Positions 1 through 50,171 are shown, counted from the first letter of the stretch. The stretch: DNA of 64,000 nucleotides from a virus (IMGVR_UViG_3300042542_005394:1-64000), one strand, 5' to 3'. A program made the numbers and translations. The notes: generated by a model not told the origin, from the sequence alone.

Positions 1-349
1 GGCATTAACAAAGACGGGTCCGTTAAATTGTCTGACCCGAATAGCGATGGCACTTGGACAGCACAAGCCAACATGATAGAAAGATATGCTAGAGGTGGAG
101 CTGTTCAAAGCTTTATGGCCGGTGGAGCAGCTAAAAAAATAGCTTTCAAGGTTGGCGATAAAGTACGCTCTCTCGAAGAGTGGGGATTAGATCGCGAAGA
201 TGATCCCGCTTATACTGTGCTCGGCATTAACAAAGACGGGTCCGTTAAATTGTCTGACCCGAATAGCGATGGCACTTGGACAGCACAAGCCAACATGATA
301 GAAAGATATGCTAGAGGTGGAGCTGTTCAAAGCTTTATGGCCGGTGGAG
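1..349 (+). repeat. Tandem in-frame duplication, period 222 bases, in the giant gene
   Basis: Bases 1-127 recur without any mismatch at 223-349, giving a 74-residue period that encodes a small beta-rich segment (FKVGDKVRSLEEWG through GGAVQSFMAGG). Identity extends through third codon positions, so the duplication is recent or kept homogeneous by recombination. Because copy one is cut by the window edge, further copies may lie upstream. Confidence 0.95.
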
Positions 350-3300: not shown

Positions 3301-6300
3301 GCAACAACTTTAGGCAAAAATTTATATGGATTTGCTCCTGATAACGATTCGAATGCTATGGCTCAACGCAGTGAGATTCTGGAAAAGAAAGGAATCCTAA
3401 ATTATTTGAGGTCCACAGATTCTTTCGGAGAAGGAGATATAGGAAGAAGGAAAGAATATGAGTCTTTAATTCCAGAAAAAGCACGAGAAAATTCTAAGAG
3501 TTTTGCCGAAACCGCTAAACTTACTAACGATCTTATCGGAGCTAAGATTCAGAGCGGATCTAGTGTAGAAGATATATTTAAAGACCCAGCATGGGCTAAA
3601 CAAGCAGAAGTTATAGCTCGATCTAATACTGCTGTAGAACAGGAAATCTTAACTATTCGTAATAGAGCAGATATTAGTAATCTTGAAAAAGAAGCACGAA
3701 TTAAGAATATCATATCTATAAATGCAGAAGAAGCTGTCAGACAGCGAGCTTCTGTTGTTGAGAGACAAAAACAAATGAAATCACTAGACGATACCACCAA
3801 CGTCTATACCAGATCTCTTGAAAGAATGTTTCAAAATATGGAACAAAGCATTGGACGCGCAAGCTTTTCACTAGAACAAATGAGTAAAGACATCGATCTT
3901 GTATCAGATTCATTGCAAGGTCAGGCCAAGATAGGAGGAATAGCACTCACAGCGATCAATACCTTGCAAAACCCAAGAGCATACTCTGATCAAGCGGTAT
4001 CTGGAGCCAGAAATGTTGCCGCTGAATCTTTTGGTATCCGATCACCAGAAATGGTTTCTTTACTTGGTGTGGGCGAAAAAATAGAGTCCACCGTAATGAG
4101 CACTATTAACAAAACAGTTAATAAAAATCCTGGTATTACGAATGAAGCTTTAGGAATAGTAGTAGGTCGTGATGTCAAATCTGCGTTAGCAGATTTGTCT
4201 TTACCAGCAGATTTAGTTGATAAATTATCAGGTGAAGTAGGTAATATTCTTAAAGACTTTCAGACATCTGGAGAAGATAAATTAGATTATACCAAGTTAA
4301 GCGAAAAATTAGGCCAATTGAATAGAGTAGTGGATAGTTCTAAACGAGCACAAGAAGTAGCAATTAAAGCTTTAGAATTTTATCAAAATGCTCTCAATAC
4401 CTATGCTCAAAATATTAATAAGACTATTGACTTGCAAATTTCCGCTAATCAAAGACTAAGAAAAGCTACTGATATAGTTACTGATTCTGAGCTATCTTTG
4501 GCAAAAACTTTAGGTAAAAATATTAGTTTGGAAAATGCCAGAGCAACAGTTAATAGCAGAGTAGCAGCCAGAACAGGAGGAGTTACTAATCCTAATGACA
4601 TATTTGATAGTATTAATAAATTAGAAAATACAAGAACCGTTCAACAAGCTGAACAAAGAAGCGCCGCCGACAGAGGAGTATCTGGACAAGCAGACTTTAT
4701 TAAGTTTACTAAGAATTTAGCAGATACTAATGTTGGCTTAAGAGAAAATATTGATGCATTAAAATACTTGGCTGAAAATACGGATATTGCCGCTTCCGCT
4801 ATGGAAAAAATCCAAGAAGCCCAACAAAAGGCTTCGGGCAGAGCGTCATTTATTGAGAAATTAGTTACAAGCACTCCCGAAGAACTAGACTCATTATCAG
4901 GGGCTTTTCAAAGATTGCAGAATAATGCTAATGGACAAATAAATACCATTAATAGATCAGTTGGAGCTCAGCGAGCCTACTACGAGGCTTTGCAAAATGG
5001 CGCAAGCATGATGGAAGCTATGAAAGCTGCTCAAGGAGCTTTTGTTAATGAAAGAAAAGAAACACTAGGCGCTTTGAATGATATTATTCCATTCTTAGGC
5101 GACGGTCAACAAGCTGGTAATGTTAAAGCAAATGTTTTAGAAAGTATGCTTCAAGAATCTGGTATCGGAGTATCTCCATTATTTCAACAAATATTAAATA
5201 CTCTTAGAAATCCAGAAATGGATCCGGCAACTCAGGCCGCTATTGCTGAATATAGAGAGGGTAATAATTTACAGGCTAGAGCAAATGCTCTGTTAGCTCA
5301 ACTTGATTCTAATCTTGCTCGCGATATTGCAAGCCAATCGGCCAAAGCTTTAGCTAGCGCTATGAGTAATGTAAAACTAAATTTTGAGACTACAGAACTA
5401 TCAGACATCGCCAGTAATATACAACAAATTAATGCAAAAATACCGGCTGGTGTTGTTCCTGCTGTTCCTAAAGCCTCTGGCGGTATCATATATGCTGCTG
5501 CTGGACGAGCTATTGACTTTAAGAGTCAAGGTACGGATACTGTGCCAGCAATGTTAACTCCCGGAGAATTTGTTGTTAATAGAGCAGCAACTCAGAGAAA
5601 TTTACCATTATTACATTCTATTAATAGCAATAAGTATAGCGGTGGAGGACCGGTTAAATACTATAGTTCTGGTGGTTATGTAAGTCAAAATTTTAAGAGC
5701 GAATATAAGAAAAGTAGCGACGACCTTAATCTCTCCAGAGAGAAGTACATCGATCCTACCTCAACAGCTTTTAGCGATATAAAATCTGTATTTGCTGGAC
5801 CCGATAAGTTTGTTAGAGGAGTACAACCAACAAATATAAAGGCTCCTTTAGCTACAGGCTCCAGAGGGAAAGCTAGTTTAGCATCGATACAAAGCACAAA
5901 TAGTATGGAAGATTTATATTTAGGAGAAGCTCCAGCCATATTAGTAGAAAAAAATGCAGACAATCAAGATGTATTTGAGTATGGCGTAATGAATAGACCA
6001 CGAGCACACCTATTAAATCCTTTGGGTTATGTGATAGATAAACCTTTTGATACTAAAAATATTACAAAAAATAAATTTGCTGAATATAGAGATAATTTTC
6101 TTCAAAAGCTAAGAGATAATGATATAGATTTATCTACTATGATAGCTAGTAGACCAGCTGTCGATAATTTTGAAAATATTAGACAAAGTTTTATTTCAGA
6201 TGAATTTTATAATCCTAATGTTAGTTCGGACAATCCAGTAGGTATGATTGTCACTAGAAATAAAAATTTAGGAGCAATAGGTTGGAATAAACAAAGCACA

Positions 6301-9300
6301 GATCATCCTAAGACATTAAAACTCTTTAAATTTGGTTCTGCAGAAGAAGATGCTACAATGGTTTCAGATAAAGATTTTGGACTTTATAAGCTTCAACTAG
6401 ATCTAATGATGTCGGAAACTAGCGCAAAGGATCGTATTAAGTTATTGGCTGGTGATAATTCGTGGGTAGCGGATAAAGATAATATTGATAGAATTATTAA
6501 AACACAAGAATTAAATATTGAAGATATTAAAAAGTCTCAAACATTTGCTTTCACCGATCCCAGAAACGCTGCGTTTAACAATCTTTTTAAGGCAGAAGAT
6601 CCAAACCTTAGTAATCTAAGACAAAAATTAGAGATGTTACACAGTGGTGCTGAAGCTATTTTATTGACCGGGTCTGAATTAAACTTTTTTGATCCCAAAG
6701 CCCTTCATCCAGACCATTCAGAAGCAGTAACTCTTTTGCACGTTTTAAGCAATAAATATAGACCTATTCTACAGAAATCCTTAAATACTAAAGAACAAGC
6801 AGATAAAATACATACAGCTTTTCCAAAATTGATGGTTGGCGGAGCAGGATTACAAAATCTAGATCGTCCAATAGATTCTTGGGCTACAAATTACGAATTT
6901 GGAATATATGACGTAGCCGACATGAGTAAAATGAAAACTTTTCCATGGGTAGCTAACGCTGATCCATCTGTTATATCACAAGATATTCAGGCCGCTATAG
7001 ACAATCAAGCTGAACAATTAAAAACAAAATACGGAATCAGCACAAAACCAGTGTCTGATTTTGGTTCATATAAGCTGAAGCTTCCTGATCCTATAGGAGA
7101 TATTGATCTACCATATCATATGCAGTATACAGAATATACTGGGCCTCAGATTGCTACAGATCCTAGCAAAGCTGATTCTAATGGTTTTAATTTGGCTGCT
7201 AATTTAAATAAAGTTTTATTAATGACTCCAAATAATAAAAATCCATTCAGTCCATACTCTCAGTTTAAAAAATATGACTATTCAACAGCTTATGTGAATA
7301 AAAAATTAACTGGTGATGAAATATTTGACAAAGCACATGTGCAACTTGACCAAATTCCCGACTTCGCAACCCTTGTTAAAGGTAATATTGACAGAAATCA
7401 AAGAGATCAACTCAAAGAAAATCTTAAAAGTGTTCAATATAGTATTGACTTAGATTCCTTAACTGATCATGCTAATCATCCAATACTTAAAAATATTCCA
7501 TTGTTTACAGATAGTCCGACAGAGAAAAAAACGCATGTATTTTCTATCGGTGAGTATCTGAGTACAGTAGCAGATAAAGTGTTTGCAGACAAAGATGCCG
7601 CAGCAAAGAAAGCTGTTGGAGAAATTGATGATAAGGGTCAATTAGCTGGTGACGTTATCAAGGATAATGATCTACCAAGAGCTGTTAAAGATTTAGCTAA
7701 ATTATCATTGGGTGTTTTTGGAAGAAGAAGAGTTCCTGGATTACCTGGAAATTGGCTATACAACAGTATCCGTGGAGTGTTACAAAGACCGTTTAGAGAT
7801 TCCGGAGTGGCTAAACAAGCAGCAGGATATACAAGTAATGTATTTGGTAATTTTGGAGGTTATCTGAGCAAATTAGCTCCCATGACAAGAAATGCTAATG
7901 TTTACCAGCAGCTAAAAGAATTATTTACGTTAGGATCTGGCGCCGCTATGGCATTTGCAGGATTAGCCAGTGGTGATACGCGAATGATAGGTCAGTTTAC
8001 TAAGCTTAATCTAAACGCAGAAGATTTATTTAGAACTCTTGGAGGAGCATCATTATTTGGTAGAATTTCTTCAACCCAATTATCTGGCGACTATCAAGCT
8101 ATATTAGGTCAGCAATTAGAAGGAGCCAAGATTAAAACGGTTGGGGCTAATGGTACACTAAGTCCGGTCTCTCCGGATAAAGCTATGCCACAAAAATATA
8201 ATGATTTGGTTAATGTTGCATTTAATCCATATAATGAATTTCCAAGTAAAGATACTCGTAAGGGTATTATTGAAAAACTTACTATGGATATGATTAATGC
8301 GCGAGATCAAATGGGTCTTCCATATTTTGATTCCAATACACAAAGATTCTTATACGGAAATATGTCTTCTTTGTATAATTGGTATGGTGGAAATGGAGTA
8401 TGGGAAGGTCAAGATTATTTCTTTGATAAGAATGCTGATCCTGATAATGCTAAGCGTACTCAACAAGTTATAGATTCTTTAAGAGGACAAGCTGGTCAAG
8501 ATGCATACTCTAAGGGTAATATTGCTCATAATACATTAGGTTTTGCTTCTCGTTATGGAAGTTTACCAACGGATAAATGGTTTGTTCAACGAAGAGAGGC
8601 TGGTTTAAATGCAGAAGCCGAAGCTGTTAACAACCCGAACGCAACCCAAGACGCTCTGAGATTTGCTACTGGAGGCGTGGTATATGCTCAAGATGGTAAG
8701 CATATTAATTTCCAACCTCGTGGAACTGATACTGTTCCAGCAATGTTGACTCCTGGCGAATTTGTAATTAATAGACAAGCCACCCAGAGGAACTTGCCTC
8801 TCCTCAAGTCTATTAATAACGGAGGAGTTCAAGGATTCAGTAGTGGGGGAGTGGCTTATCTTAGTAGGGGAGGACAACCAAACGATGTTTCATCGGGCAG
8901 GTTTGAATTATCTGATGACCAAGCACCATTTTCTCATAGGTCAATCAATCCATTAACGGGAAATAGAACTCCCGAGAAAGGTGATGATCTTGAGAAAAAA
9001 TATAGGATTAACTCTGGTATATATGATTATTTAACCCTGAGAACCACAATGCCAGATTGGTTGGTCTCATTAAATAATTTAAGTTTCGATGATAATAGCA
9101 TGCGCTTTTTTAGCGATGCTTCTTTTTACAAAACTTTAACTAGAATACGAGAAGCTACTGATTTAAGAAGTCTTCAAAATTTATCATATGATTTTGTTAA
9201 AGGCTTTAAATATAGAGACTATAATCAAGATAGTCGTCTTAGCGGCTTTGATTTCACAACCCATCTATCTAAAACAGATGGAATTTTAGGATTAATAGAT

Positions 9301-12300
9301 CCTGATGTGGGGGGAGACCTTCAGCCGAAAGATTTGGTCAAATGGAGAACAACGAAAGCTAAGCTCCAAGCAAAAGGAAGTGCTGCAAGAGTTATTCGAA
9401 ATTTAACTCCTGACCTAGAAAATATAAGAGATATTCTTTCTGATCAAAAGCCCGCGGGAGAGAATAATAATCCAGAGTTTAAAAATAGAAATGATTATGA
9501 GTCACCCGCAGCTTTAATAAGATCTACTGTTAGTCAATGGAAAAAAGACAGACAACAACAACAGCTTAGAGTAAAAGTTCGACAAGAAGAGAGAGCAGCA
9601 GAAGACGGCGGTCAAATTACTATGCCTCCTCATCTTAGTCTAGATTTTGACAAAATTAATGAAGAAGATGTTGTGAAAGATATTCTTACTAAGAATAAAA
9701 CTCCAAATACTAAAAATTTAGTAGATTGGCTCGAAAATAATGTGAAAACAGTATCTGAAAAAGTAGCTGACTTGGTACCTGTTCCAAAGGCTAGTGAGGA
9801 GTGGGATGCTGCTGATGCAGAACGGCCTCGTGTTATTTTAGACCTTATTAAGAATGGCCCAGAAGCTTTCATGATCGGAATGAGAGGAGAAACCAAAGAG
9901 GGCAAGGGTAAGAGACTTATCTATGGGTTACTAAACCAGTCTGCTAGAGTTCAAGGAATTAATAATCTTATTAAAGCTAGATCATTATTTTCTGGATCTG
10001 ATACTCCACTCAGAAAAGATGGAGATATGGCTAGAATAGATAGTAGTTTAGTATATAGCGATCAGACCAGAACTCCTGAAAATTTTGTAGGAAGAGAAGA
10101 TAAAGTAGCAAGGCCGGGGCAATTTAAACCTGGAATTATGTTAGATAGATTAAGAAATCCAGTAGATGATGCTGCAATACCTGGATCCGGACCAAACAGA
10201 GAGGAAACTCCTGCTGAACGCACAGAAAGAGAAAATAGAGCCAGGATGGCAGATAGGAATGGAAGATCGGCTATTCGTGGCCTTGAACTATGGGATACTA
10301 ATAGAGATGGTCAAATTTCTTTTGAAGAATGGAGTGAGTTTACTCCTGAACAACCTAAACTAGAAAGATTTTTTGGCGCTTCTACTGTTGATGCATTAAT
10401 GGGAGCTTATTCTTTAGCATTAAAAGGCTTGGGTCTTAGAGATAAAAACGCCACAGACAATTTCAAACCCAGAACTCTAAAAGACTTTTTTAATAATATT
10501 GATAAAGATAACTCTGGATTTATCGATCCACATGAATTCTCAGATATGGTTGGTCAACCACTTAAATATCTTGATTTAGAAACAGATAGAGAAGCAAAAG
10601 AATTAGGAGATACATTAGGAACACAAAGAGATCCTCGTGGTGCTAATAAATTAGCTTATGCTAGAATAGACAAAGCCCAGATTGCATCAGTAAAAGCATT
10701 ATTAAAACAAGATTTTAAAGAACTATACCCAGTTTCTTTCTCTAAGGCTTCGCAATACTCAGAAAGAGAAGTAATACAACCACAGATAGATGAACTTAGA
10801 AAAATTACAGGGGTTTCTGAGCGAGACAAGATAAATAAAAGAACAGTGTTGGCAAATATAGCATCGTCCTTAAATAAGAATAATAGTGATTGGGGTCTTG
10901 CTCCTAATGTTAAGGAAAATCTTGGTAATATTATCGTTAAAATTAATCAAGATTCTCTGCTATTTCCAGGAGTGGTTAATAAAGCATACACCCAAGGTCT
11001 TGCTATACCTCAAGATCTTCTACACAATACTGATATTAACTATGAGAAGACTCTTAATGCATCAGGGGTTGATAGAGACATATTTGAAACCATATGGCAA
11101 GACTATAAACTATTTTCTAAGTTTGATAACCCAAACAGCAAGGCTTCGTTTGAGAAAACATATAAATTAGAGAATGAACTTAATTCTCAAGAAATGGGAG
11201 AAGCCGAAGAAAGAAGTAAAGCAGCAGCGGAACTAAATCAAAAAGCAAAAAATAAAAGAGCAGCTAAAAATGATCTAACAAAAAAGATTTTAAGAGAAGA
11301 ACTATTTGTTAAAGATAGTTATTTCAAAGAATTTCCCAAACAATGGGGTGGCAGATACAAGGATTACTACGATTTACCTGATCCAACTCTTGCTCGACAT
11401 GTTGAGATGTATAACTCATCAATACCTTCCGGAGAATCCGGTCGTCTATCAATGCCAACTGCAGATCAAGAGCAGGATCATAAAGACAGATTAAAAGATA
11501 TTAGCAAAAATCCAAATCCAATTTATGCTAGTAATGGAATGCTTATTCCTTATCAGCCAAGAGGTACCGATACCGTTCCTGCAATGCTCACGCCGGGAGA
11601 GTTTGTAGTCAATAGAGCCGCAACACAAAGAAATTTACCATTATTAAAATCTATCAATAGTAATACATATCTAGCTAAAGGAGGTTCGGTCGGCCAAACT
11701 GTAATAAATATTCCAGCAAATACCATAAAAAATAATCTAGATACCATAAACACAAATGCAATTAAAAACTATAATATATCAAAACACATTAAAGAACAAA
11801 ATAGTTTAATGATAAGAGGAGCCGAGCAGACACACAGAGAAACACTCAATATAGGTAATGATGTTGGAGAAATGAGAGATCAGTCAACCTCAACTTATAT
11901 TGAGACACAGCAAATGATTGGGAAGGCAAGAGAGATAATGGAAAGATATCAGCAGCTTCCGAACAATTTGAGTACCGGTGGAATAGTTTATGCTGCTGAT
12001 GGTACATTAATAAACTATCAACCTCGCGGTACCGATACTGTTCCTGCAATGTTAACTCCCGGTGAATTTGTTGTTAACGCCCAAGCAACCAGAGCTAATC
12101 TGCCATTATTACAAAGTATTAATCAAAGCAAGGGTGGTAGCATTAAAGGATTTGCTAATGGTGGGGTAATTTATGCTACTGACGGCGGCACAATCCCAAC
12201 TAAGCCAGACGGTTCTGCTGATACTAATTTTGATGCTCGTAAAGCTAAACGAACAGCATATTTACAAAGGCAGATAGAAAAAGAAGAAAAATCAGAATTT

Positions 12301-15276
12301 ATTGATAAACTAGGCATTCTTTATAATGATACTACAAATAAAGAGAAGATAGCAGACGCCCTAAAGAGACAAAAGGACTATAGAAGAAAAATTGATTATT
12401 ATATTCGACAATTTACTACAGACAAAGCTTTAGATATTAAACTTAAAAGATTTCCAAGAATAAGCGAAGCAGCAGAAATGCTTGTAGAGCAATCACAACA
12501 GCCAACTGTAGACCCATTTGCCCAGCCTGATTATGGCCCTGGCCCAGCGATAATGGTTAATGGTAAGAGAGTGCAATCGAAAGCCAATGGTGGAGTGGTT
12601 TATGCTCAAGAAGGATTTGACCCATCAAGACCATTAAATCCGATGATAAATCGTCACGGAAAGGGTCCAACTTCAACCCTGCCCCAACAGCCTATTACTA
12701 ATTTTGATAGTGAAAAGTTGGCCGAAGAAGGAAAAGCTTTTATGTACGGAGCTGCTAAGTCCGTACTTCCGGGGTTAGCTGGTTTGGGTGCTGGAGTTTT
12801 AGGATTACCCACTACTGGTCCTGGTGGATTTGCTATTGGCTTAGGAGCAGGGGCCGCAGTATATCAAGCTCAAGAAAATTATTTGAATGCTTTAGCTCCA
12901 CAAACTAATAAAGACATTAATAAAACCATGGAAGATAATTGGCAAGCTTCATTATTAGGATCCCTGCTTGGTGGTATAGGTGCTGATAAAATAGGTCGTA
13001 ATTTACTGTCTTCTTCTATGAAGAATACTTCAGGAATTAGAATGCTTCCATCTGGTAACGGTTCTTCAAGACCAGATATGAAAAGTGCTGGTCAAGAAGC
13101 TTTAGAAGAATTTTCTTTAAGAAGCAGACCAGCAGCTAGCGCCCCATTAGATATGCCCAAAACAGCAAAAACAGTATCTCTTTTTCATGCTAGTAATACC
13201 GGATTAGAAAACTCTATTTTACAAAGTTTTCAAAAACAAGGAGGAAAAAGTGGTATTGCAGGAGGATATGGACAAGGTAAAGGATTATATGCTTATACTA
13301 GCAGAGAAGCAGCTGAAAAACATGCAAGAAATATTCTTAAAGGAGGTACGCTTACAGGAGCGGATATTCGTGGTAAGCCAATGATTGTTAAATTCGATGA
13401 AGCCTTAGATCCTTCTAAGTTTGATTTAGATTATGAATTTAATGCTGGATATGTTACAAGATGGATACATGATAACTTTGACGATATACAAAAGATATTA
13501 GCTGATCAAAAAATACCAATGCTTAAGGGTAAAGGATTAGATCCTGTTACTGGCTCTAAAGGAATACACACACAGGTTTCTACGGTACAACCTGGAACTC
13601 TCGATGCTTTACTACAATCTCGTACTGGAGGAGTAGGTCCTAAAAAATGGATATACGACACACAAGATTCTACAAGAGATGGCGAAATTTTGTCTAGAAT
13701 TATAAAAGCATTAGAAAAAAGAAATCCAGAGATGGTCAAAAAATTTAGACAAGGATTTTTTGAAACTATGCCAGCTGGATCAGCTATTAAATATACTGGT
13801 TCAGATAATTTAATGCCTAGCAATATCGATGTATTAGCTAAGGCTAGAGGCGGCATGATTTATGCTTCTCGTGGAACCTTGGTAAACTATCAACCTCGTG
13901 GTACTGATACTGTTCCGGCAATGTTAACTCCCGGAGAGTTTGTTGTTAATGCTAAAGCTACTTCTAGAAATTTATCATTACTACAATCTATAAATAATGG
14001 AGTTAAAGGATATTCTAATGGAGGAGTGGTTGATCCTATCTATAGAGATCCAGGCGGAGTAGTCCCTTCTCTAGGCGATCTAATAAATACTAAATATAAA
14101 GACGCAAAAGACGAAGACCTAGAACCAAAAAAGGATGACTCTAAAGAAATCAAAAGAGAAAAATACAGAGTTCGTATGGATAGGAAAAAAAAGAATAGTC
14201 CATATCAACAGATGCTTGATCAGAGGAGGGAGGCTTATGAAAATCCCAATTCACGAGAAGAGAGAGTTAGAGAAAGAAACGAACAAAATAATCCGCTTTT
14301 AAAAATACAAAGACTAGTAACAGAACAATATCAACAAGATCCAATAAAATTTCAAAAAGAAGGATATAAATCAAAATCTCCACAGGAATTAGCAGCAGAA
14401 TATGAACAATTATGGAGCTCTGAGCCTCCAGAAAAATTATACGACATAGCAAAAGCCAAATATTTTGAGGACCAAAAACGATATAAGGGCTTAAAAACTG
14501 TTTATAGTAATTCGTTGAATGCTCTAGCATTAATTAGACAACGTCCAGCTTTTGGAAATACCATAATCGAAAATTCCGGAAAGAGACTAGTAGAACTATT
14601 GAATACTGTTGTTCAAGGATCATATGCGGAGGGATTAGCTTTGGATCAGGGTTGGAAAATTTTAGGACAAAAATATCCAGAATTTTTAGCAGAAAATTCA
14701 CCAACTAATCAGCGCAGAGCAGCCGGACTCTATGCTGGAGGATTAATATATGCCAATACGGGAATGTTAATTCCTTATCAGCCTCGTGGAACTGACACTG
14801 TTCCGGCGATGTTAACTCCAGGAGAATTTGTAGTCAATAAACAAGCTACTCAAAATAATCTAGATTTATTAAAACAAATCAATAGTAATAGATATAATCA
14901 GGGCGGAGCTGTAGCCTATAAACAGTCTGGCGGTCCGATAGCAGCAGCTACTAAACCGATTTATAGACAGTATGGAGGAATGACGGATGAAACTTCTACG
15001 GGTGGTGGCGGTGGTGTATCTAATAATGGTAATGTTGGTCTAAATTTGGATGGTTTGAGTAACTTTACAGCTACATTTGACAAGTTTATTCAGCAATTAA
15101 ATGGCCTAAAACTACCAGAAGTAATCAATATTCAAGGAAATCATAAGGTTGATGTGGTAATTAATGGAGCAGCGGCATTTCAGGGTATGCAGGAGGGTGT
15201 GAGGAATATGGTACTTATGGAAGTAAATAAGGCCATGGCAAGCATAAGTAAACAAACAGACGGAGCTATATCATAA
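1..15276 (+). CDS. Giant multidomain tape-measure-like tail protein (5' partial)
   Basis: The reading frame is open from base 1, so the start lies upstream; the first in-frame TTG at 28 is not the true start. At least 5,091 residues are visible. Family knowledge: tape measure proteins set tail length, and many carry the motif GTDTVPAMLTPGEFVVN and a C-terminal segment ending like VVINGAAAFQGMQEGV, both present here. Visible order: duplicated SH3-like segment (1-350); HExxH segment (HEMTH at 1123-1137); two degenerate linkers (about 1700-1990); long helical core with a hydrophobic stretch (2790-3080); then modules split by six near-identical linkers, including EF-hand-like loops (9217-10536), a hydrophobic segment (12765-12900) and an ADP-ribosyltransferase-like segment (13159-13470). 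Codon divergence with protein conservation between linkers implies selection. Tape measure role is well supported; enzymatic cargo roles are inferred. Confidence 0.85.
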   Translation, partial: GINKDGSVKLSDPNSDGTWTAQANMIERYARGGAVQSFMAGGAAKKIAFKVGDKVRSLEEWGLDREDDPAYTVLGINKDGSVKLSDPNSDGTWTAQANMIERYARGGAVQSFMAGGVATKTRKPKEVFGTGETEFPSRISKKYAEEQHSAGERLRAKLAWDRNPKDERIIIDDEKVKESFQQPFDRNRFIASFKEKISRDSLFERMSDFAKFVGLPQEDLTTALPLQLDFGASQRGGGLGMFAAAQFEKGATGIRPYEGYDISKSGYGEKQKQEAYGLEKLIEAKQKEIKKITKTPTETFDDGSFSFDRDAFQKANIELDSLKNRFFRLKDLKREAEKAALAEQNTVSSATGRGTISFAPSMGYSSDTKNSTLYHEMTHQLFQGLRTRSEESFNKYRTKVASLFSGDNDDLADAFDSLTSGGGYSSADVVYGRSYKSNNLSQILLSYYRQVGDSSRGATPIPEDITKNLASLSNQSTTAKRAREYRPINPQVNKALLQAGDKFGMTQEKINRMEDNGKEEFLTTLIEKAPQLDQHLQGILDSTLTELLGSAGIQRQKYAAGGNVKFAGGGYSANTVPALVSNGEAFVPPETARKIGYSTLNRMNQADRNGMGRFSEGGISLFKGPGSGTSDSIGPVGLPVGGFVIRAAATKALGFNRGGAVQRFAFGGAPRALPNVNVNYNQALAVVGVMDSVTSELENLAGVLQTLGVRSSDSARIIQSGTQATYQQAIRATEADIRRARLAGATAEQIANAENQLANIRNQARQDIETRRTLGGLSGNQLQAIESNAETIRNTATERMRNRLARRGMSQEDIDTRLQENAGAISRASYERASRASGVNLRAAGLTGDDAQRFVRQSMGDPRVLRQMDQQLRQQLRNSTEYTTASRAQQRQMRQSVEEEIRTRRDIVNNLARQRGQQAPGGDQRGNFGGMLGLSFGLQGLGSLLAQQINASSSASNAATAGAIQGGVSGLATGAMLTGGIRDMLGSSLSPAMSKLLGGFGFVATAAAAVGQAFIDSHNAVITFEKTLQQNKVETALSDSQKLFEKLNNGIKNIDVQRTLTSKLAEAGDAVIAGIELNNSRAKAMWVNLLDVGTLKGNNIATTLGKNLYGFAPDNDSNAMAQRSEILEKKGILNYLRSTDSFGEGDIGRRKEYESLIPEKARENSKSFAETAKLTNDLIGAKIQSGSSVEDIFKDPAWAKQAEVIARSNTAVEQEILTIRNRADISNLEKEARIKNIISINAEEAVRQRASVVERQKQMKSLDDTTNVYTRSLERMFQNMEQSIGRASFSLEQMSKDIDLVSDSLQGQAKIGGIALTAINTLQNPRAYSDQAVSGARNVAAESFGIRSPEMVSLLGVGEKIESTVMSTINKTVNKNPGITNEALGIVVGRDVKSALADLSLPADLVDKLSGEVGNILKDFQTSGEDKLDYTKLSEKLGQLNRVVDSSKRAQEVAIKALEFYQNALNTYAQNINKTIDLQISANQRLRKATDIVTDSELSLAKTLGKNISLENARATVNSRVAARTGGVTNPNDIFDSINKLENTRTVQQAEQRSAADRGVSGQADFIKFTKNLADTNVGLRENIDALKYLAENTDIAASAMEKIQEAQQKASGRASFIEKLVTSTPEELDSLSGAFQRLQNNANGQINTINRSVGAQRAYYEALQNGASMMEAMKAAQGAFVNERKETLGALNDIIPFLGDGQQAGNVKANVLESMLQESGIGVSPLFQQILNTLRNPEMDPATQAAIAEYREGNNLQARANALLAQLDSNLARDIASQSAKALASAMSNVKLNFETTELSDIASNIQQINAKIPAGVVPAVPKASGGIIYAAAGRAIDFKSQGTDTVPAMLTPGEFVVNRAATQRNLPLLHSINSNKYSGGGPVKYYSSGGYVSQNFKSEYKKSSDDLNLSREKYIDPTSTAFSDIKSVFAGPDKFVRGVQPTNIKAPLATGSRGKASLASIQSTNSMEDLYLGEAPAILVEKNADNQDVFEYGVMNRPRAHLLNPLGYVIDKPFDTKNITKNKFAEYRDNFLQKLRDNDIDLSTMIASRPAVDNFENIRQSFISDEFYNPNVSSDNPVGMIVTRNKNLGAIGWNKQSTDHPKTLKLFKFGSAEEDATMVSDKDFGLYKLQLDLMMSETSAKDRIKLLAGDNSWVADKDNIDRIIKTQELNIEDIKKSQTFAFTDPRNAAFNNLFKAEDPNLSNLRQKLEMLHSGAEAILLTGSELNFFDPKALHPDHSEAVTLLHVLSNKYRPILQKSLNTKEQADKIHTAFPKLMVGGAGLQNLDRPIDSWATNYEFGIYDVADMSKMKTFPWVANADPSVISQDIQAAIDNQAEQLKTKYGISTKPVSDFGSYKLKLPDPIGDIDLPYHMQYTEYTGPQIATDPSKADSNGFNLAANLNKVLLMTPNNKNPFSPYSQFKKYDYSTAYVNKKLTGDEIFDKAHVQLDQIPDFATLVKGNIDRNQRDQLKENLKSVQYSIDLDSLTDHANHPILKNIPLFTDSPTEKKTHVFSIGEYLSTVADKVFADKDAAAKKAVGEIDDKGQLAGDVIKDNDLPRAVKDLAKLSLGVFGRRRVPGLPGNWLYNSIRGVLQRPFRDSGVAKQAAGYTSNVFGNFGGYLSKLAPMTRNANVYQQLKELFTLGSGAAMAFAGLASGDTRMIGQFTKLNLNAEDLFRTLGGASLFGRISSTQLSGDYQAILGQQLEGAKIKTVGANGTLSPVSPDKAMPQKYNDLVNVAFNPYNEFPSKDTRKGIIEKLTMDMINARDQMGLPYFDSNTQRFLYGNMSSLYNWYGGNGVWEGQDYFFDKNADPDNAKRTQQVIDSLRGQAGQDAYSKGNIAHNTLGFASRYGSLPTDKWFVQRREAGLNAEAEAVNNPNATQDALRFATGGVVYAQDGKHINFQPRGTDTVPAMLTPGEFVINRQATQRNLPLLKSINNGGVQGFSSGGVAYLSRGGQPNDVSSGRFELSDDQAPFSHRSINPLTGNRTPEKGDDLEKKYRINSGIYDYLTLRTTMPDWLVSLNNLSFDDNSMRFFSDASFYKTLTRIREATDLRSLQNLSYDFVKGFKYRDYNQDSRLSGFDFTTHLSKTDGILGLIDPDVGGDLQPKDLVKWRTTKAKLQAKGSAARVIRNLTPDLENIRDILSDQKPAGENNNPEFKNRNDYESPAALIRSTVSQWKKDRQQQQLRVKVRQEERAAEDGGQITMPPHLSLDFDKINEEDVVKDILTKNKTPNTKNLVDWLENNVKTVSEKVADLVPVPKASEEWDAADAERPRVILDLIKNGPEAFMIGMRGETKEGKGKRLIYGLLNQSARVQGINNLIKARSLFSGSDTPLRKDGDMARIDSSLVYSDQTRTPENFVGREDKVARPGQFKPGIMLDRLRNPVDDAAIPGSGPNREETPAERTERENRARMADRNGRSAIRGLELWDTNRDGQISFEEWSEFTPEQPKLERFFGASTVDALMGAYSLALKGLGLRDKNATDNFKPRTLKDFFNNIDKDNSGFIDPHEFSDMVGQPLKYLDLETDREAKELGDTLGTQRDPRGANKLAYARIDKAQIASVKALLKQDFKELYPVSFSKASQYSEREVIQPQIDELRKITGVSERDKINKRTVLANIASSLNKNNSDWGLAPNVKENLGNIIVKINQDSLLFPGVVNKAYTQGLAIPQDLLHNTDINYEKTLNASGVDRDIFETIWQDYKLFSKFDNPNSKASFEKTYKLENELNSQEMGEAEERSKAAAELNQKAKNKRAAKNDLTKKILREELFVKDSYFKEFPKQWGGRYKDYYDLPDPTLARHVEMYNSSIPSGESGRLSMPTADQEQDHKDRLKDISKNPNPIYASNGMLIPYQPRGTDTVPAMLTPGEFVVNRAATQRNLPLLKSINSNTYLAKGGSVGQTVINIPANTIKNNLDTINTNAIKNYNISKHIKEQNSLMIRGAEQTHRETLNIGNDVGEMRDQSTSTYIETQQMIGKAREIMERYQQLPNNLSTGGIVYAADGTLINYQPRGTDTVPAMLTPGEFVVNAQATRANLPLLQSINQSKGGSIKGFANGGVIYATDGGTIPTKPDGSADTNFDARKAKRTAYLQRQIEKEEKSEFIDKLGILYNDTTNKEKIADALKRQKDYRRKIDYYIRQFTTDKALDIKLKRFPRISEAAEMLVEQSQQPTVDPFAQPDYGPGPAIMVNGKRVQSKANGGVVYAQEGFDPSRPLNPMINRHGKGPTSTLPQQPITNFDSEKLAEEGKAFMYGAAKSVLPGLAGLGAGVLGLPTTGPGGFAIGLGAGAAVYQAQENYLNALAPQTNKDINKTMEDNWQASLLGSLLGGIGADKIGRNLLSSSMKNTSGIRMLPSGNGSSRPDMKSAGQEALEEFSLRSRPAASAPLDMPKTAKTVSLFHASNTGLENSILQSFQKQGGKSGIAGGYGQGKGLYAYTSREAAEKHARNILKGGTLTGADIRGKPMIVKFDEALDPSKFDLDYEFNAGYVTRWIHDNFDDIQKILADQKIPMLKGKGLDPVTGSKGIHTQVSTVQPGTLDALLQSRTGGVGPKKWIYDTQDSTRDGEILSRIIKALEKRNPEMVKKFRQGFFETMPAGSAIKYTGSDNLMPSNIDVLAKARGGMIYASRGTLVNYQPRGTDTVPAMLTPGEFVVNAKATSRNLSLLQSINNGVKGYSNGGVVDPIYRDPGGVVPSLGDLINTKYKDAKDEDLEPKKDDSKEIKREKYRVRMDRKKKNSPYQQMLDQRREAYENPNSREERVRERNEQNNPLLKIQRLVTEQYQQDPIKFQKEGYKSKSPQELAAEYEQLWSSEPPEKLYDIAKAKYFEDQKRYKGLKTVYSNSLNALALIRQRPAFGNTIIENSGKRLVELLNTVVQGSYAEGLALDQGWKILGQKYPEFLAENSPTNQRRAAGLYAGGLIYANTGMLIPYQPRGTDTVPAMLTPGEFVVNKQATQNNLDLLKQINSNRYNQGGAVAYKQSGGPIAAATKPIYRQYGGMTDETSTGGGGGVSNNGNVGLNLDGLSNFTATFDKFIQQLNGLKLPEVINIQGNHKVDVVINGAAAFQGMQEGVRNMVLMEVNKAMASISKQTDGAIS
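9217..10536 (+). other. EF-hand/dockerin-like calcium loops inside the giant protein
   Basis: Two canonical 12-residue EF-hand loops are encoded: DTNRDGQISFEE (10294-10329) and DKDNSGFIDPHE (10501-10536), with acidic residues at positions 1, 3 or 5, Gly at 6, Ile at 8 and Glu at 12. Two weaker loops precede them: DYNQDSRLSGFD (9217-9252) and DPDVGGDLQPKD (9298-9333), both with Asp at 12 as in dockerins. Calcium binding is inferred from the motif. Confidence 0.75.
13159..13470 (+). other. ADP-ribosyltransferase-like segment inside the giant protein
   Basis: The order of motifs resembles the H-Y-E (diphtheria toxin/PARP-like) fold: LFHASNTG with a His (codon at 13186), about 30 residues later GQGKGLYAYTS with a Tyr followed by a helix rich in Ala and Glu, then KPMIVKFDEALDPSKF with acidic residues shortly after. 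This is a motif-level reading without alignment; another alpha/beta fold is possible. Confidence 0.4.
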
Positions 15277-45316: not shown

Positions 45317-45694
45317 TTAGAAACTGACCACTTCTTCCTCTGAAGCTTCCTTGTTTTTCCTGTTAGAAAGCTTTGTAATCTTTGAGAAATTGTTTACTCT
45401 GATCTTGAGGCTATTATGCTTTACCCCATCCTTTTCCCAAGAATCATTTCTAAGAGAACCCTCAACTAGAACAAGATCACCCTTCTTAAAAGACTGACTA
45501 ATAATTTCAGCCCCTGTATCCCAAGCCTCGCAAGGAACAAATGTGGTAACCTTATCCTTTTCTCCATTAGCCTTAGTATATTCACGAGAAACAGCAACTG
45601 TAAAATTTACTACTGAAGTCTGCTTACCGTTTGTACTAACAACCCTGAGCTCGGGATCTCTTGCTAAATTACCACGTAAAATATTTAGATTCAT
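45317..45694 (-). CDS. ssb: Single-stranded DNA-binding protein
   Basis: 125 residues. The ATG at 45694 is supported by AAGGAG 6 bases upstream; the in-frame TTG at 45697 is not. It is an OB-fold SSB: MNLNILRGNLARDPELRV, then TVAVSREYT, FVPCEAWDTGAE and GDLVLVEGSLRNDSW follow the bacterial SSB order. The C terminus EEEVVSF is an acidic tip of the kind that recruits replication and repair partners. It has its own sigma70-like promoter inside the end of the polymerase gene and a hairpin terminator behind it, so it can be expressed apart from, and more strongly than, its neighbours. Confidence 0.95.
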   Translation of the reverse strand: MNLNILRGNLARDPELRVVSTNGKQTSVVNFTVAVSREYTKANGEKDKVTTFVPCEAWDTGAEIISQSFKKGDLVLVEGSLRNDSWEKDGVKHNSLKIRVNNFSKITKLSNRKNKEASEEEVVSF

Positions 45695-45740
45695 CAAAAT
45701 CTCCTTTTAAAGAAAATAACCAATTCCAACTGACTGAACT

Positions 45741-45769
45741 ATAATAGACGAACCCCGGAGCAACGTCAA
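45741..45769 (-). promoter_or_regulatory. Sigma70-like promoter for ssb
   Basis: On the minus strand TTGACG (45769-45764) and TATTAT (45746-45741) are separated by exactly 17 bases, each differing from consensus by one base. It overlaps the last codons of the polymerase C-terminal gene and lies 46 bases before the ssb ATG. This is the best promoter I can see in the window. Confidence 0.8.
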
Positions 45770-47394
45770 GTGCTCGGCAGATAAACTTTTTCAACAATCA
45801 GAGAGTCGCCAGTTTTTGCTCTTGACCCTTTAATAATAACAACGTTCCCACTAAATAGTAAATTACGATACATCTTGTATGATTCTGGGAAAAATATAAC
45901 AGAGTCCAAGAGACCCGTACCATCACTCACTGTAACGAATGCCATTTCTAATCCGGGATTTTTTCCCTTCTTTGTTTTTGTAATCCCTATATTCTCTATT
46001 TCTGCACAAAGTAGAATATTGTCCTTGAAAAGGCTATTTTTAAAATCTTTGCATGTAGTATTTGTCATTGTAACATCATACATATCAACCTTGGAACATG
46101 TAATATTACAACCTAAAATCTCATCTTCGCTATCTGCTATCCATTCAGGATTATCCTCTAAAGAATATGGAGGTTTATTAATAGCATTAATTAAAGTAAG
46201 AATAATGCTTTTCCTGTTTTTATTGATTTTAGCATTATGATACAGGTCGTGCATCGCATCCGATATTGTTGTATATTTAGAGATATTAGATATAATATAT
46301 TCGCATTCTTTTTTTGTTAATTCAGAAGCTATTCCAAAATCAAAAAGCATGGAAGTTCTGCTCTTTACCAGAAAAGATAAAGCACCAGCTTGAATTAAAG
46401 CTTTGGACGCATTAGAGTTTATATTCAATAATATATGCATGAGTAATTCTATCCATGTCATATTATCTATGTATAGTTTTTTATCTTTTAGTAGTTTGAT
46501 TAATTTATCAAAAATAGACTGGCCAAAACCTTTGATATCTGTTAATCCAAAATATATCTTTTGATTTTTTAAAATAAAGTGCTTATTAAGATTTCTAATA
46601 TCTGGTATACTAATATCTATATCCATCTCATTGGCATTTTGTACTAACTCTTTTATTTCTGCTTTGGGGTCTATTTTATCTTTCGCAAATCTTAGATATG
46701 ACGCAAAGAACACCCTGGGAAAATGTGCCTTAGTATACGCCGATAGATAGGCATTAATAGCATATGACACAGCATGGCTTTTGTTAAATGAATATCTTTG
46801 GCTTTTTTCGACCCACCCAAAAATCTCTTCTGCTTGTTCAGTTGATACCGTATTCTTAAGTTTACATCCCTCTAAAAACTTCGACTTGATTTTGGCCATC
46901 TCCTCTGGTTTTTTCTTTCCAATAGCTTTTCTCAACATGTCTGCTTCTTCCAAATTAAAACCAGCAATTACTTTAGCTATTTCCATAGCTTGTTCCTGAT
47001 AGATCATTTCACCATATGTACTGTGCAATATGGGTTCTAATGAAGGATGATAATAATCTACTGATTCTTGAGCATTCTTTTTATCTATATAGTGATTACT
47101 AACATTTTTACCTTCTCTATAAGCTTCAAGACATCCCGGTCTAAGAATACTGATCAACCCAGATAATTGTTCAATATTTTCTGGTTTTAACTTTTTAGCC
47201 ATAGACTTACCAAGCCTAGACTCTAACTGAAAACATCCCTTTGTATTACCGGCAGATATTAACTCCCAAGTTTTGGTACAGTCCAACGGTATATTTTCTA
47301 TAACAGGAAGGAATTCTATTAATGTTTTTTCTGGGTCATTGCCTTCAATTACATTAAACGAACATCCACAAGAATATTGAAATTTTTTAGACAT
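45766..47394 (-). CDS. dnaE: DNA polymerase III alpha subunit, C-terminal part
   Basis: 542 residues from the ATG at 47394 (TTG at 47400 rejected). It opens with a short Cys motif YSCGCSF, then continues the DnaE fold after the palm: IPLDCTKTWELI, GNTKGCFQLESRLG, ILRPGCLEAYREG, YGEMIYQEQAMEIAK, ADMLRKAIGKKK and SQRYSFNKSHAVSYA, which form the fingers; then a helix-hairpin-helix-like segment (YFGLTDIKGFG) and a C-terminal OB fold (LCAEIENIGITKTKKG, FVTVSDGTGLL). It must pair with the N-terminal half encoded about 0.9 kb upstream. No intein splice motifs are present at the break. It overlaps the exonuclease gene by 8 bases. Confidence 0.92.
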   Translation of the reverse strand: MSKKFQYSCGCSFNVIEGNDPEKTLIEFLPVIENIPLDCTKTWELISAGNTKGCFQLESRLGKSMAKKLKPENIEQLSGLISILRPGCLEAYREGKNVSNHYIDKKNAQESVDYYHPSLEPILHSTYGEMIYQEQAMEIAKVIAGFNLEEADMLRKAIGKKKPEEMAKIKSKFLEGCKLKNTVSTEQAEEIFGWVEKSQRYSFNKSHAVSYAINAYLSAYTKAHFPRVFFASYLRFAKDKIDPKAEIKELVQNANEMDIDISIPDIRNLNKHFILKNQKIYFGLTDIKGFGQSIFDKLIKLLKDKKLYIDNMTWIELLMHILLNINSNASKALIQAGALSFLVKSRTSMLFDFGIASELTKKECEYIISNISKYTTISDAMHDLYHNAKINKNRKSIILTLINAINKPPYSLEDNPEWIADSEDEILGCNITCSKVDMYDVTMTNTTCKDFKNSLFKDNILLCAEIENIGITKTKKGKNPGLEMAFVTVSDGTGLLDSVIFFPESYKMYRNLLFSGNVVIIKGSRAKTGDSLIVEKVYLPST

Positions 47395-48079
47395 TTGCAA
47401 AAGAGTTTTTGAATTTAATTTTATTACCCAAATTACGATGCAGTCTTAAAAACCTTATCAGTATCTCAGCACAATCTTGAACATCTTTAAATGCGTCGTG
47501 TGCACCAACTTTTGATATTCCAAAATAATCTCTCAAAGAGTCTAATGTGTAGCTCTTAAGATCATTATTACTTTCAAACCAGTAAAATATTAGATTCATT
47601 ATGTCCACAACGTCTCGTGGATAGAATATATCAGAACGACCTTCTTTATTAGTATGACCATATTTAACGCTCAAGCGATCTATGATATTCAAATCAAAAC
47701 GATTGATATTATATCCAGCCGCTATTGGAGCACTAAATTGACTCTTTTTAGAAGATCTACTGTGATGCATTTCTAAATAATTAGTAAACATCTTCCAAGA
47801 TTGTTCTTGTTCAGGATATTCTTTCCATTGAGTCAAAATATCGTCCTTAGAACAGCCTTTAACCTTAGCATGAAAATCCAGTATATCTGTTGTATATACA
47901 TAATTTTCGTCCTTAGCCAAAGTTTCTGGTTTAAAGAAAACATTAAATTCTGACTTAGGCACAATTTCTAACTTAATTGGGTCGATGATTAATGCAGCCA
48001 TTTGCACTGGACTACAAGTTCTTGGATCAGACCCATCTGTTTCAAAATCAAATACGCAAATTTTGTTATAGTTTATCAT
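47387..48079 (-). CDS. DEDDh 3'-5' exonuclease (epsilon-like proofreader)
   Basis: 230 residues. Exo I motif VFDFETDG (Asp11, Glu13), Exo II GYNINRFDL and Exo III AHDAFKDVQD make up the DEDDh catalytic set of the DnaQ family, which removes mispaired 3' ends using two metal ions. Slightly longer than a minimal DnaQ domain. The gene sits between the two halves of the polymerase alpha subunit, starts in a TAATG overlap with the 72-residue gene and overlaps the polymerase C-terminal gene, so it is almost certainly the proofreader of this polymerase. No clear beta-clamp binding motif was identified. Confidence 0.9.
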   Translation of the reverse strand: MINYNKICVFDFETDGSDPRTCSPVQMAALIIDPIKLEIVPKSEFNVFFKPETLAKDENYVYTTDILDFHAKVKGCSKDDILTQWKEYPEQEQSWKMFTNYLEMHHSRSSKKSQFSAPIAAGYNINRFDLNIIDRLSVKYGHTNKEGRSDIFYPRDVVDIMNLIFYWFESNNDLKSYTLDSLRDYFGISKVGAHDAFKDVQDCAEILIRFLRLHRNLGNKIKFKNSFANV

Positions 48080-48297
48080 TAGTTGTTATTACTCGTAGTT
48101 TCTGTTACTAATTCAACCTCTACAAGCGGAGTTATTTGAACCTTTTGTTGAGGGTTGGATACAAGAGCAGCAGTCAGAATATGACAGCAGCTTACTCTCT
48201 CTTCAGATATCTTTACATACTCACTTATTGGTCCACCATTAACAGATGTCCTAAACTTTTGACCTACAGCTAAATCCATAAATTTTACCATAATCAT
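48079..48297 (-). CDS. Small conserved-type protein between polymerase and exonuclease
   Basis: 72 residues, function unknown. MVKFMDLAVGQKFRTS ... EYVKISEERVSCCH resembles a small beta protein found in many phage genomes with the pattern FxDLxxGxxFxxxxxxYxKI. Its ATG overlaps the TGA of the polymerase N-terminal gene and its TAA overlaps the exonuclease ATG, so it is translated with both. A structural bridge within the polymerase complex is conceivable but unsupported. Confidence 0.65.
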   Translation of the reverse strand: MIMVKFMDLAVGQKFRTSVNGGPISEYVKISEERVSCCHILTAALVSNPQQKVQITPLVEVELVTETTSNNN

Positions 48298-50171
48298 TCT
48301 CCATTTTTAAGAATATCTTGAATAGTCATAATTTTATCTAACATTGCAATTCCAAGAATATCAAACTTAATAACTCCCAAAGCCTCCAAATCTTGCATTT
48401 CCATGCCAGCAATCATTTGATCATTTTTACTATCGTATACCATTGGACAAATTGTATTTAATGGTTCTGAGCTAATTGCTATTCCGGCAGCATGTTTGGA
48501 TTGATTGGACTTTGTTCCTTCTAATCTTATAGCCTGTTCGAATCTTTTTGCAAGCGGGCCTTGTAGTTCATTATTGTCGTCTATGTAGCACCATTCCTTG
48601 AGTTTATCTGGCTGATTTTCTAAAGACCAACGTATAATTGAAGCTTCACCAGTTTCATCCTTCATTTCCTGAAGATCGTCCGCAATTTTTGACTCATCAG
48701 GTATGCTTTTAGTTATTTTATTCATTTCATCGAAACTAATATTACCATAAACTCTCAGAACATCTTTAAGAGCACCTCTACCTTTCATGGTATTAAAAGT
48801 AATCATCTGAGAAACCTTATCGACCCCGTATGTTTGCTTAATATATTCTATAATATTTTCCCTTTTGTCAATAGGAACGTCCACATCTATATCTGGCATT
48901 GATATGTGATCTTTGGAATTTCTACCACTATTATAAAACCTTTCAAACAATAAGCTGTATTTTATAGGATCAATACTTGTTATACCTATAAGATATGAAA
49001 CTAAACAACCCGCCGCCGAGCCTCTGCCCGGTCCGGGAAGCCAACCATTTTTTCTTACATAATTAACAATATCTTGTACTATTAAAAAATAACTAGATAG
49101 ACCAGCACCCTGTAATATATCTAATTCATATTTTACTCTGTCAACATACACTTGATGTTCTTCCTTGGGAATAACATTAGCTATTTTGGCTTTCCAACCT
49201 TTGCGACATAATTCTCTTAAATACTCAGCATCATCCATCCCGTCTGGACAAGGAAATGGAGGTAATCTTGGTTTATGTAAAATATTATATTCTTCACACA
49301 TATTAGCTAATATATTAGTATTAACTATTTCTTCTTCAGTATGAATCTCTTTAATTTCTTCCTGAGATAATATATGAAAATTATCAGATGTAAAAAAACA
49401 GCCAAGAGCAACAGCCTCATCATTAGCTATTTTCCTACTAATGTCAGGAAATGTTGTCTTTAGATTATTGCACAATAAAATTCTTTGATCTGTTGCGTCT
49501 TCTCTTCGTGCATAGTGAGCATCAGGAGTACATATGATCTTAGTATTGGTGATTTTAGATAATTGTCTCATAGCATCAGTTAATATGCTTTGTATTGGAG
49601 AATTATCTTTATCCATAAGCTGAGCCTCCAAAAAGAAATTCTCTGACCCAAAAATAGTTTTATAGGTAGAAATCTCCCGTTTTCCTATATCGACCCAATC
49701 TATTTTAAGTTGGTTGTTTTCAGTAATTTTATCTGCTATTACCGACCCAGGATGACCACAAAAGGCTATAATATTGTTGTTACAGAACTTGGATAACGTG
49801 GTTAGGTCTAGTCTAGGTTTGTGATAATAAAAATCTGGCCTATTAGATTCTGATACTATTCTTATTAGACTTCTCCAACCCTCATAATTTTTGGCTAGAA
49901 TAACTAGATGACTGAGTTTTTTATTTTCAGGGGTTTGTATAGACGGATCGGACTCACAGATATATAATTCACAACCTAATATTGGCTTTATACCATGTTT
50001 TTTCATTTCTGTATAAAACTTAACACACCCAGCTATATTACCATGGTCTGTTAATGCACAAGCTCTTACTCCTATCTCTAAACAACGTTCAGCAATAGTC
50101 GATGGTTGAGAGAGTCCATCCAATAAAGAATAAGTAGAATGTAAATGTAGGGGGATATAGTTTACTGTCAT
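48294..50171 (-). CDS. dnaE: DNA polymerase III alpha subunit, N-terminal part (PHP and palm)
   Basis: 625 residues. PHP domain: PLHLHSTYSLLDG, ALTDHGN, GCELY, CGHPGS and CTPDAHYARRED, with most metal-binding His and Asp positions apparently kept, unlike E. coli. Palm: PGPGRGSAAGCLVSYLIGI, then MPDIDVDVP (the catalytic Asp pair) and IKFDILGI, which holds the third Asp. The protein stops 17 residues later, exactly between palm and fingers, so all catalytic Asp residues are here and the rest is in the downstream gene. No ribosome binding site is obvious; the start lies 5 bases after the nuclease stop. Confidence 0.93.
   Translation of the reverse strand: MTVNYIPLHLHSTYSLLDGLSQPSTIAERCLEIGVRACALTDHGNIAGCVKFYTEMKKHGIKPILGCELYICESDPSIQTPENKKLSHLVILAKNYEGWRSLIRIVSESNRPDFYYHKPRLDLTTLSKFCNNNIIAFCGHPGSVIADKITENNQLKIDWVDIGKREISTYKTIFGSENFFLEAQLMDKDNSPIQSILTDAMRQLSKITNTKIICTPDAHYARREDATDQRILLCNNLKTTFPDISRKIANDEAVALGCFFTSDNFHILSQEEIKEIHTEEEIVNTNILANMCEEYNILHKPRLPPFPCPDGMDDAEYLRELCRKGWKAKIANVIPKEEHQVYVDRVKYELDILQGAGLSSYFLIVQDIVNYVRKNGWLPGPGRGSAAGCLVSYLIGITSIDPIKYSLLFERFYNSGRNSKDHISMPDIDVDVPIDKRENIIEYIKQTYGVDKVSQMITFNTMKGRGALKDVLRVYGNISFDEMNKITKSIPDESKIADDLQEMKDETGEASIIRWSLENQPDKLKEWCYIDDNNELQGPLAKRFEQAIRLEGTKSNQSKHAAGIAISSEPLNTICPMVYDSKNDQMIAGMEMQDLEALGVIKFDILGIAMLDKIMTIQDILKNGE

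What the first reader, a model, noticed from the sequence alone, without database searches (positions are those of the whole stretch)
45766..50171. Polymerase III alpha split between palm and fingers, with its proofreader encoded in the gap
The N-terminal gene has the PHP domain and all three catalytic Asp residues; the C-terminal gene starts with a small Cys motif and continues with fingers, hairpin and OB fold. A DEDDh exonuclease and a 72-residue protein lie between, all overlapping. No intein motifs occur at the break, so the halves should assemble non-covalently. The compact layout looks like a designed complex of four subunits.
Basis: partly seen in the sequence, partly recalled or inferred. 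Interest (0 to 1): 0.65.

Follow-up and report, generated by a model that had tools for sequence, protein, structure and literature searches.

The report
Phage replicase split in two chains
A large family of uncultured phages encodes its main DNA-copying enzyme as two separate proteins broken exactly between two of its structural domains, with the gene for the error-correcting nuclease sitting in the gap; the break appears to be old, inherited and not repaired by protein or RNA splicing, and the gap's other contents vary.

Summary
A 113-kb virus contig encodes a DnaE-type Pol III alpha as an N-half (PHP, thumb, palm; all three catalytic Asp) and a C-half (fingers, helix-hairpin-helix, OB fold), broken at E. 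coli alpha ~575. A DEDDh exonuclease and a 72-residue protein lie in the gap.

It is not an artefact. In 170 distinct related loci (as little as ~43% identity) the halves are always separate and always ordered N-exo-C. No fused member turned up, and the halves form one clade. No intein remnant flanks this break, although inteins invade other sites of the same genes in relatives and are easy to see there. The large contigs searched carry no second alpha, PolA, PolB or DnaN. Non-covalent assembly of the halves is therefore the best reading.

The "designed four-subunit complex" is only partly supported. The 72-mer (predicted small SH3/Tudor-like barrel) is replaced or absent in several clades. 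A sister lineage (one contig, L490) has the same break and a Cys-x-Cys start of the C-half, but RNase HII in the gap, so the break probably predates the exonuclease there. Phage phiT1 shows the same break independently.

Split phage alphas broken elsewhere are known (actinophages, jumbo phages). This is a new variant of a known kind.

The parts
48294..50171 (-). DnaE N-half, 625 aa: PHP, thumb, palm with the three catalytic Asp (D427, D429, D604)
   Evidence: Pfam PHP and DNA_pol3_alpha; residues aligned to E. coli alpha
48079..48297 (-). 72-residue small protein (possibly 70 aa from the ATG at 48291); predicted small SH3/Tudor-like barrel with an invariant CC
   Evidence: replaced or absent in several relatives
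47387..48079 (-). DEDDh exonuclease, 230 aa, epsilon/DnaQ-like proofreader candidate
   Evidence: Pfam RNase_T; D11 E13 D129 H194 D199 conserved in at least 97% of 171
45766..47394 (-). DnaE C-half, 542 aa from ATG 47394 (544 from TTG 47400): CGC hairpin, fingers, HhH, OB fold
   Evidence: Pfam finger, HHH_6, OB; predicted structure matches solved alphas
47352..47394 (-). N-terminal Cys motif of the C-half (MSKKFQYSCGCSFN)
   Evidence: conserved in 157 of 170 loci, lost in one subclade
45317..45697 (-). SSB, next gene downstream in the same replication cluster
   Evidence: Pfam SSB; terminator-like hairpin 45287-45271 follows

Best explanation
The locus encodes a naturally split C-family replicative polymerase. 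Chain 1 carries PHP, thumb and palm with the three metal-binding Asp. Chain 2 carries fingers, HhH and OB fold. Each chain has its own start and stop at a loop between two domains (shown by sequence and its conservation). They fold separately and dock across the palm/fingers interface into one active site without covalent joining (inferred). The CGC hairpin that begins the C-half may help docking, but it is dispensable because one subclade lost it. The DEDDh exonuclease encoded between them is a free-standing, epsilon-like proofreader probably made from the same mRNA (inferred). The small protein is an accessory at most. This alpha is the phage's own replicase (no other DNA polymerase was found). 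The break is inherited from one ancestral event in this clade; the exonuclease and then the small gene probably entered the gap later.
For: Domains and catalytic residues are divided cleanly between the halves. 170 of 170 distinct loci are split with the exonuclease between; none is fused; the exo-C junction is within 60 nt in 88%. 61 more locus entries, many from contigs already counted, are also split with the exonuclease between. One clade, SH-aLRT 100. Distances of N, C and exo correlate (r = 0.93-0.94), with no pair in which one gene is near and another far. Fingers, HhH and OB of the C-half are predicted as in solved alphas. Ten large contigs (125-244 kb) have one finger domain each; PolA and PolB were not found in nine of these plus L002's contig. 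Inteins at other sites are easily seen, so an intein here would not be missed. phiT1, a complete-genome phage record, has the same break.
Against: Gene neighbourhood alone does not prove that this exonuclease binds this alpha. No clamp-binding motif is recognisable at the usual place, and no DnaN was found, so processivity is unexplained. L490, which orders the events, is a single contig on a long branch. Most records are metagenomic contigs.
Confidence: 0.8

Rival explanations
1. The halves are joined after all: a cryptic intron containing p72 and exo, or an unrecognised trans-splicing element, gives a covalent alpha.
For: Introns and inteins are common in this family's dnaE at other sites, and Rfam misses probable introns in the positive-control loci, so its silence here is not proof.
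Against: Both halves end and begin with short conserved native-looking termini; gap genes are complete, in-frame, overlapping and variable in identity; no intein blocks; C-half has its own conserved start with the CGC motif.
Confidence: 0.05
2. The four products form one obligate, co-designed complex.
For: Conserved order N-exo-C in 170 of 170, tight overlaps, and p72-like gene in 121 of 170.
Against: p72 is replaced by unrelated genes or absent in several clades, including basal L394; exo is missing from the gap of sister lineage L490. The gap is also opened by unrelated genes (L037, L055, L326).
Confidence: 0.1
3. The break is a neutral scar: a selfish element (homing endonuclease or intein) once split the gene and was lost or replaced by cargo; gene order has no functional meaning.
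For: Homing elements hit these very genes repeatedly, and an HNH-like ORF occupies the p72 slot in L022; the break recurs in unrelated phages (phiT1).
Against: No remnant of such an element at the break; strict retention of exo between the halves over deep divergence argues for some selection. Compatible with the best explanation as an account of origin.
Confidence: 0.35
4. One half is degenerate or has a separate role, and the host alpha replicates the phage.
For: No phage clamp was found and the clamp motif is not recognisable.
Against: All catalytic residues invariant in both halves; N, C and exo evolve together.
Confidence: 0.04
5. Sequencing or assembly error.
For: Metagenomic contig.
Against: Complete genes in the gap and 170 distinct split loci.
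Confidence: 0.005

Closest known systems
Rossellomorea phage phiT1 gp20/gp19/gp18 (PV767480)
   Same: alpha broken at the same palm/fingers boundary (~E. coli 578), small ORF in the gap, complete genome of a phage of a cultured host
   Different: outside the clade on the tree; gap holds only a 49-aa ORF; no CGC start; no exonuclease between
Minimal split Pol III alpha of group-2.2 jumbo phages (Iyer et al. 2021, PMC7824862; Atu_ph07)
   Same: phage Pol III alpha as two proteins thought to reconstitute an enzyme
   Different: no PHP; genes ~180 kb apart; beside a family B polymerase; break inside the palm, before the third Asp
Two-gene alpha of Microbacterium cluster EF phages (PMC7302621; Rie18 56/57 examined here) and Mycobacterium phage Onyinye 82/83/84
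   Same: alpha expressed from two neighbouring genes, reported in print for cluster EF
   Different: break between PHP and palm (~E. coli 285); no exonuclease between
Ssp/Npu DnaE split intein
   Same: dnaE in two genes (general knowledge)
   Different: joined by trans-splicing at another site; no intein here
Methanothermobacter PolB encoded by two polypeptides (PMC7776575)
   Same: works-like analogue: a DNA polymerase from two chains
   Different: family B, unrelated fold
PolC
   Same: alpha and DEDDh exonuclease tied together genetically (general knowledge)
   Different: in PolC the exonuclease is a domain inside one chain; here it is a separate gene between two chains

Membership tests
C-family Pol III alpha (DnaE type) | PHP domain, palm with three Asp, fingers, HhH, OB fold | tested here: met
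   met by the two chains together, not by either alone
C-family Pol III alpha (DnaE type) | single polypeptide | tested here: not met
   0 of 170 loci fused
C-family Pol III alpha (DnaE type) | internal clamp-binding motif (QxxLF-like) | tested here: not met
   E. coli 895-930 region reads R..ML(F/Y).. followed mostly by LTKKE-like sequence; no such motif
DnaQ/epsilon DEDDh proofreading exonuclease | RNase_T fold with D-E-D-H-D residues | tested here: met
   Pfam E=1.1e-9; D11 E13 D129 H194 D199 at >=97%
DnaQ/epsilon DEDDh proofreading exonuclease | binds alpha PHP and edits its products | not testable with these tools
   needs biochemistry
Split-intein dnaE (Ssp DnaE type) | intein N/C fragments at the break | tested here: not met
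   termini lack intein blocks; Pfam finds none in P0001/P0002 but does in L031 and L106
Jumbo-phage minimal split alpha (Iyer 2021) | no PHP; halves far apart; PolB present; break inside palm | tested here: not met
   PHP present, halves ~0.9 kb apart, no PolB in the relatives' contigs searched, break at palm/fingers
Fractured gene (split intein plus endonuclease ORF) | endonuclease gene in the gap and intein halves | tested here: not met
   gap holds p72 and exo; the pattern is seen at another site in L031 and L053
Actinophage PHP|palm two-gene alpha | break at the PHP/palm junction | tested here: not met
   window ~575, Rie18 ~285, Onyinye ~284

The most novel reading that the evidence does not exclude
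The proofreader is an assembly part: translated between the two halves, it docks on the N-half first and the C-half closes on it, so that only exonuclease-loaded polymerase can form. A split at the palm/fingers hinge would then have been kept as a fidelity checkpoint.
Probability: 0.1. Interest if true: 0.75.

Novelty: new variant of a known kind. Interest (0 to 1): 0.5.

Why it matters
A replicative Pol III alpha appears able to work as two chains cut at the palm/fingers boundary, stably over deep phage divergence. That gives natural split points for engineering and for studying how fingers move on the palm. It also gives a family in which the order of events (break first, exonuclease later) can be traced and tested, and it warns that gene callers will report such replicases as two partial DnaE genes.

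Tried and rejected
Sequencing frameshift: rejected, 170 distinct split loci. Intein: rejected, no blocks. Intron: Rfam negative, but it also misses the probable introns used as positive controls (KLEB27-3, Jayan, L077, L247), so that scan was discarded as evidence; argued instead from conserved termini. CGC of the C-half and CC of p72 as one shared metal site: rejected, they do not co-occur (9 loci with p72 lack CxC; s71 and no-gene loci keep CxC). Bacteroides phage DAC19, with a 28%-identical exonuclease beside a 555-aa gene, as a cultured member: rejected, that gene is a terminase. The 'Lokiarchaeota' bin as host: not accepted; its contigs look viral and other members fall in unrelated MAGs. 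p72 fold search: no significant match, only SH3/Tudor-like shapes.

Full report
What is there. The window is part of a 113,002-bp virus record. On the minus strand, in transcription order, lie a DnaB-type helicase, a Toprim protein, a dNMP-kinase-like gene, a PD-(D/E)XK nuclease, the N-half of DnaE, a 72-residue ORF, a DEDDh exonuclease, the C-half of DnaE and an SSB. A terminator-like hairpin follows SSB. The N-half matches PHP and the Pol III alpha catalytic domain; the C-half matches fingers, HHH_6 and an OB fold. Against E. coli alpha the last aligned residue of the N-half is ~565 and the first of the C-half ~586. A joint alignment puts the break at ~575, the palm/fingers junction. D401, D403 and D555 are all in the N-half; R709, Y754 and H760 of the fingers are in the C-half; all are invariant in 27 representatives. 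The PHP metal-ligand positions are kept across the family, with His140 where Taq and some phage alphas have Cys, so PHP nuclease activity is possible (inference).

Is the break real and inherited? Yes. Eight scans of viral contigs and one of genome contigs gave several hundred locus entries. Of the loci are distinct by their exonuclease and C-half sequences. In all 170 the halves are in different ORFs and the order is N-exo-C; exo and C are within 60 nt in 88%. Of 65 further entries, many of them from contigs already counted, 61 show the same order; one is incomplete, one is L490 (below), and two are fused, but these two came in with the phiT1 query and do not belong to this family. A tree of the concatenated halves puts all split+exo members in one clade with SH-aLRT 100, apart from fused phage and bacterial DnaE. 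Distances for N, C and exo correlate at 0.93-0.94 and no pair shows one gene near and another far.

Is alpha made covalent again? Probably not. The halves have short conserved ends and no intein blocks. In this same family, inteins at other sites are obvious: L031 and L053 have a split intein at GPGRG^SAAG with a free endonuclease ORF between, and L106 has an intein at RPG^C. Rfam finds no intron here, but it also misses the probable introns of KLEB27-3, Jayan and L077, so this proves nothing. The gap holds complete, overlapping genes.

Is it the replicase? Ten large contigs of the family (125-244 kb) each have exactly one finger domain and no DnaN. Nine of them plus the 52-kb contig of L002 have no PolA or PolB. 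The window's own record also has one finger domain and no DnaN. All are fragments or of unknown completeness. No QxxLF-like clamp-binding motif is seen at the usual site. How the enzyme gains processivity is open.

The gap. The exonuclease keeps D11, E13, D129, H194 and D199 in at least 97% of 171 sequences and usually a K.FK..F-like tail. The 72-residue protein is predicted with high confidence (pLDDT 92) as a small barrel; the PDB search gives only weak SH3/Tudor-like matches. It is not essential to the layout: p72-like in 121 of 170, an unrelated 71-aa gene in 8, no gene in 5, undetected or other in 36, including a 227-aa HNH-like ORF in L022 (no significant Pfam hit). Some of the 36 hold small ORFs too diverged for BLAST but alignable to p72. 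The CGC start of the C-half is present in the deep branches and lost in one subclade; it does not track p72.

Order of events. One contig, L490, has a DnaE broken at the same boundary, with a CxC start that aligns to the family's CGC, but with a 110-aa ORF, RNase HII and a Zn-ribbon gene in the gap. The tree makes it sister to the split+exo clade (SH-aLRT 100; long branch, single record). The simplest reading is break and CxC first, exonuclease later. Rossellomorea phage phiT1 has the same break with a 49-aa ORF between and falls with fused phages, so the break arose more than once.

Comparison with what is known. Split alphas in phages are not new. Microbacterium cluster EF phages are reported to have two alpha genes (PMC7302621); in the Microbacterium phage Rie18 the break is at PHP/palm. 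Group-2.2 jumbo phages have a minimal alpha in two distant genes beside PolB (PMC7824862); in Atu_ph07 the break is inside the palm. No paper found in the held library describes a palm/fingers break with the proofreader in the gap. Absence from that library is not proof of novelty.

Shown: anatomy, conservation, monophyly, single alpha per contig, variable gap. Inferred: non-covalent assembly, proofreading by this exonuclease, order of events. Not tested: any physical interaction.

Noticed in passing
L031 4050-7126; L053 4077-7137; also L206, L210: N-half itself broken by a split intein at GPGRG^SAAG; L031 and L053 have a free-standing endonuclease ORF between (fractured-gene layout); L206/L210 show an insertion at the same residue.
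   Followed up: partly
L106 10708-13107; L179, L180: Contiguous intein in the C-half at RPG^C in L106; an insertion of similar size at the same residue in L179/L180.
   Followed up: partly
L077 5356-6285; L247, L364-L369, L371: About 1.1-kb insertion at the catalytic MPDIDVD site of the N-half, with a LAGLIDADG ORF in L077 (probable intron, not recognised by Rfam). L077 also has a LAGLIDADG-bearing insertion, probably an intein, in the upstream PD-(D/E)XK gene.
   Followed up: partly
L399 15596-17614 (G000 78596-80614): The window's own genome has an intein with LAGLIDADG motifs inside a peptidase-like gene.
   Followed up: partly
L037 5602-6585; L055 5818-6891: DUF1559/N-methylation prepilin-like gene between exo and C-half; such genes are typical of Planctomycetota (general knowledge), a host lead.
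   Followed up: no
L245, L246 (MAG Hel_238_bin13): Family members inside a 'Lokiarchaeota' MAG; gene content (glycosyltransferases, split DnaE) matches the phages, so likely viral contigs binned there.
   Followed up: partly
L416 2319-5919 (Cellulophaga phage phiST gp044/gp045): Two annotated alpha genes whose facing ends look like a split intein just before PDIDTD.
   Followed up: no
L408 6480-7520 (Bacillus phage KLEB27-3): dnaE interrupted in the fingers by a probable group I intron with an HNH gene; not recognised by Rfam.
   Followed up: no
exonuclease C-terminus, window 47387-47430: Conserved K(I)KFK(D/N/G)(S/A)F-like tail in most members, a candidate docking peptide for alpha or a clamp.
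   Followed up: partly
L400 18818-19741 (G000 100818-101741): Phage-encoded RuvB-like AAA+ ATPase.
   Followed up: no
window 28-15276: A 5082-codon ORF on the plus strand in the presumed structural region.
   Followed up: no
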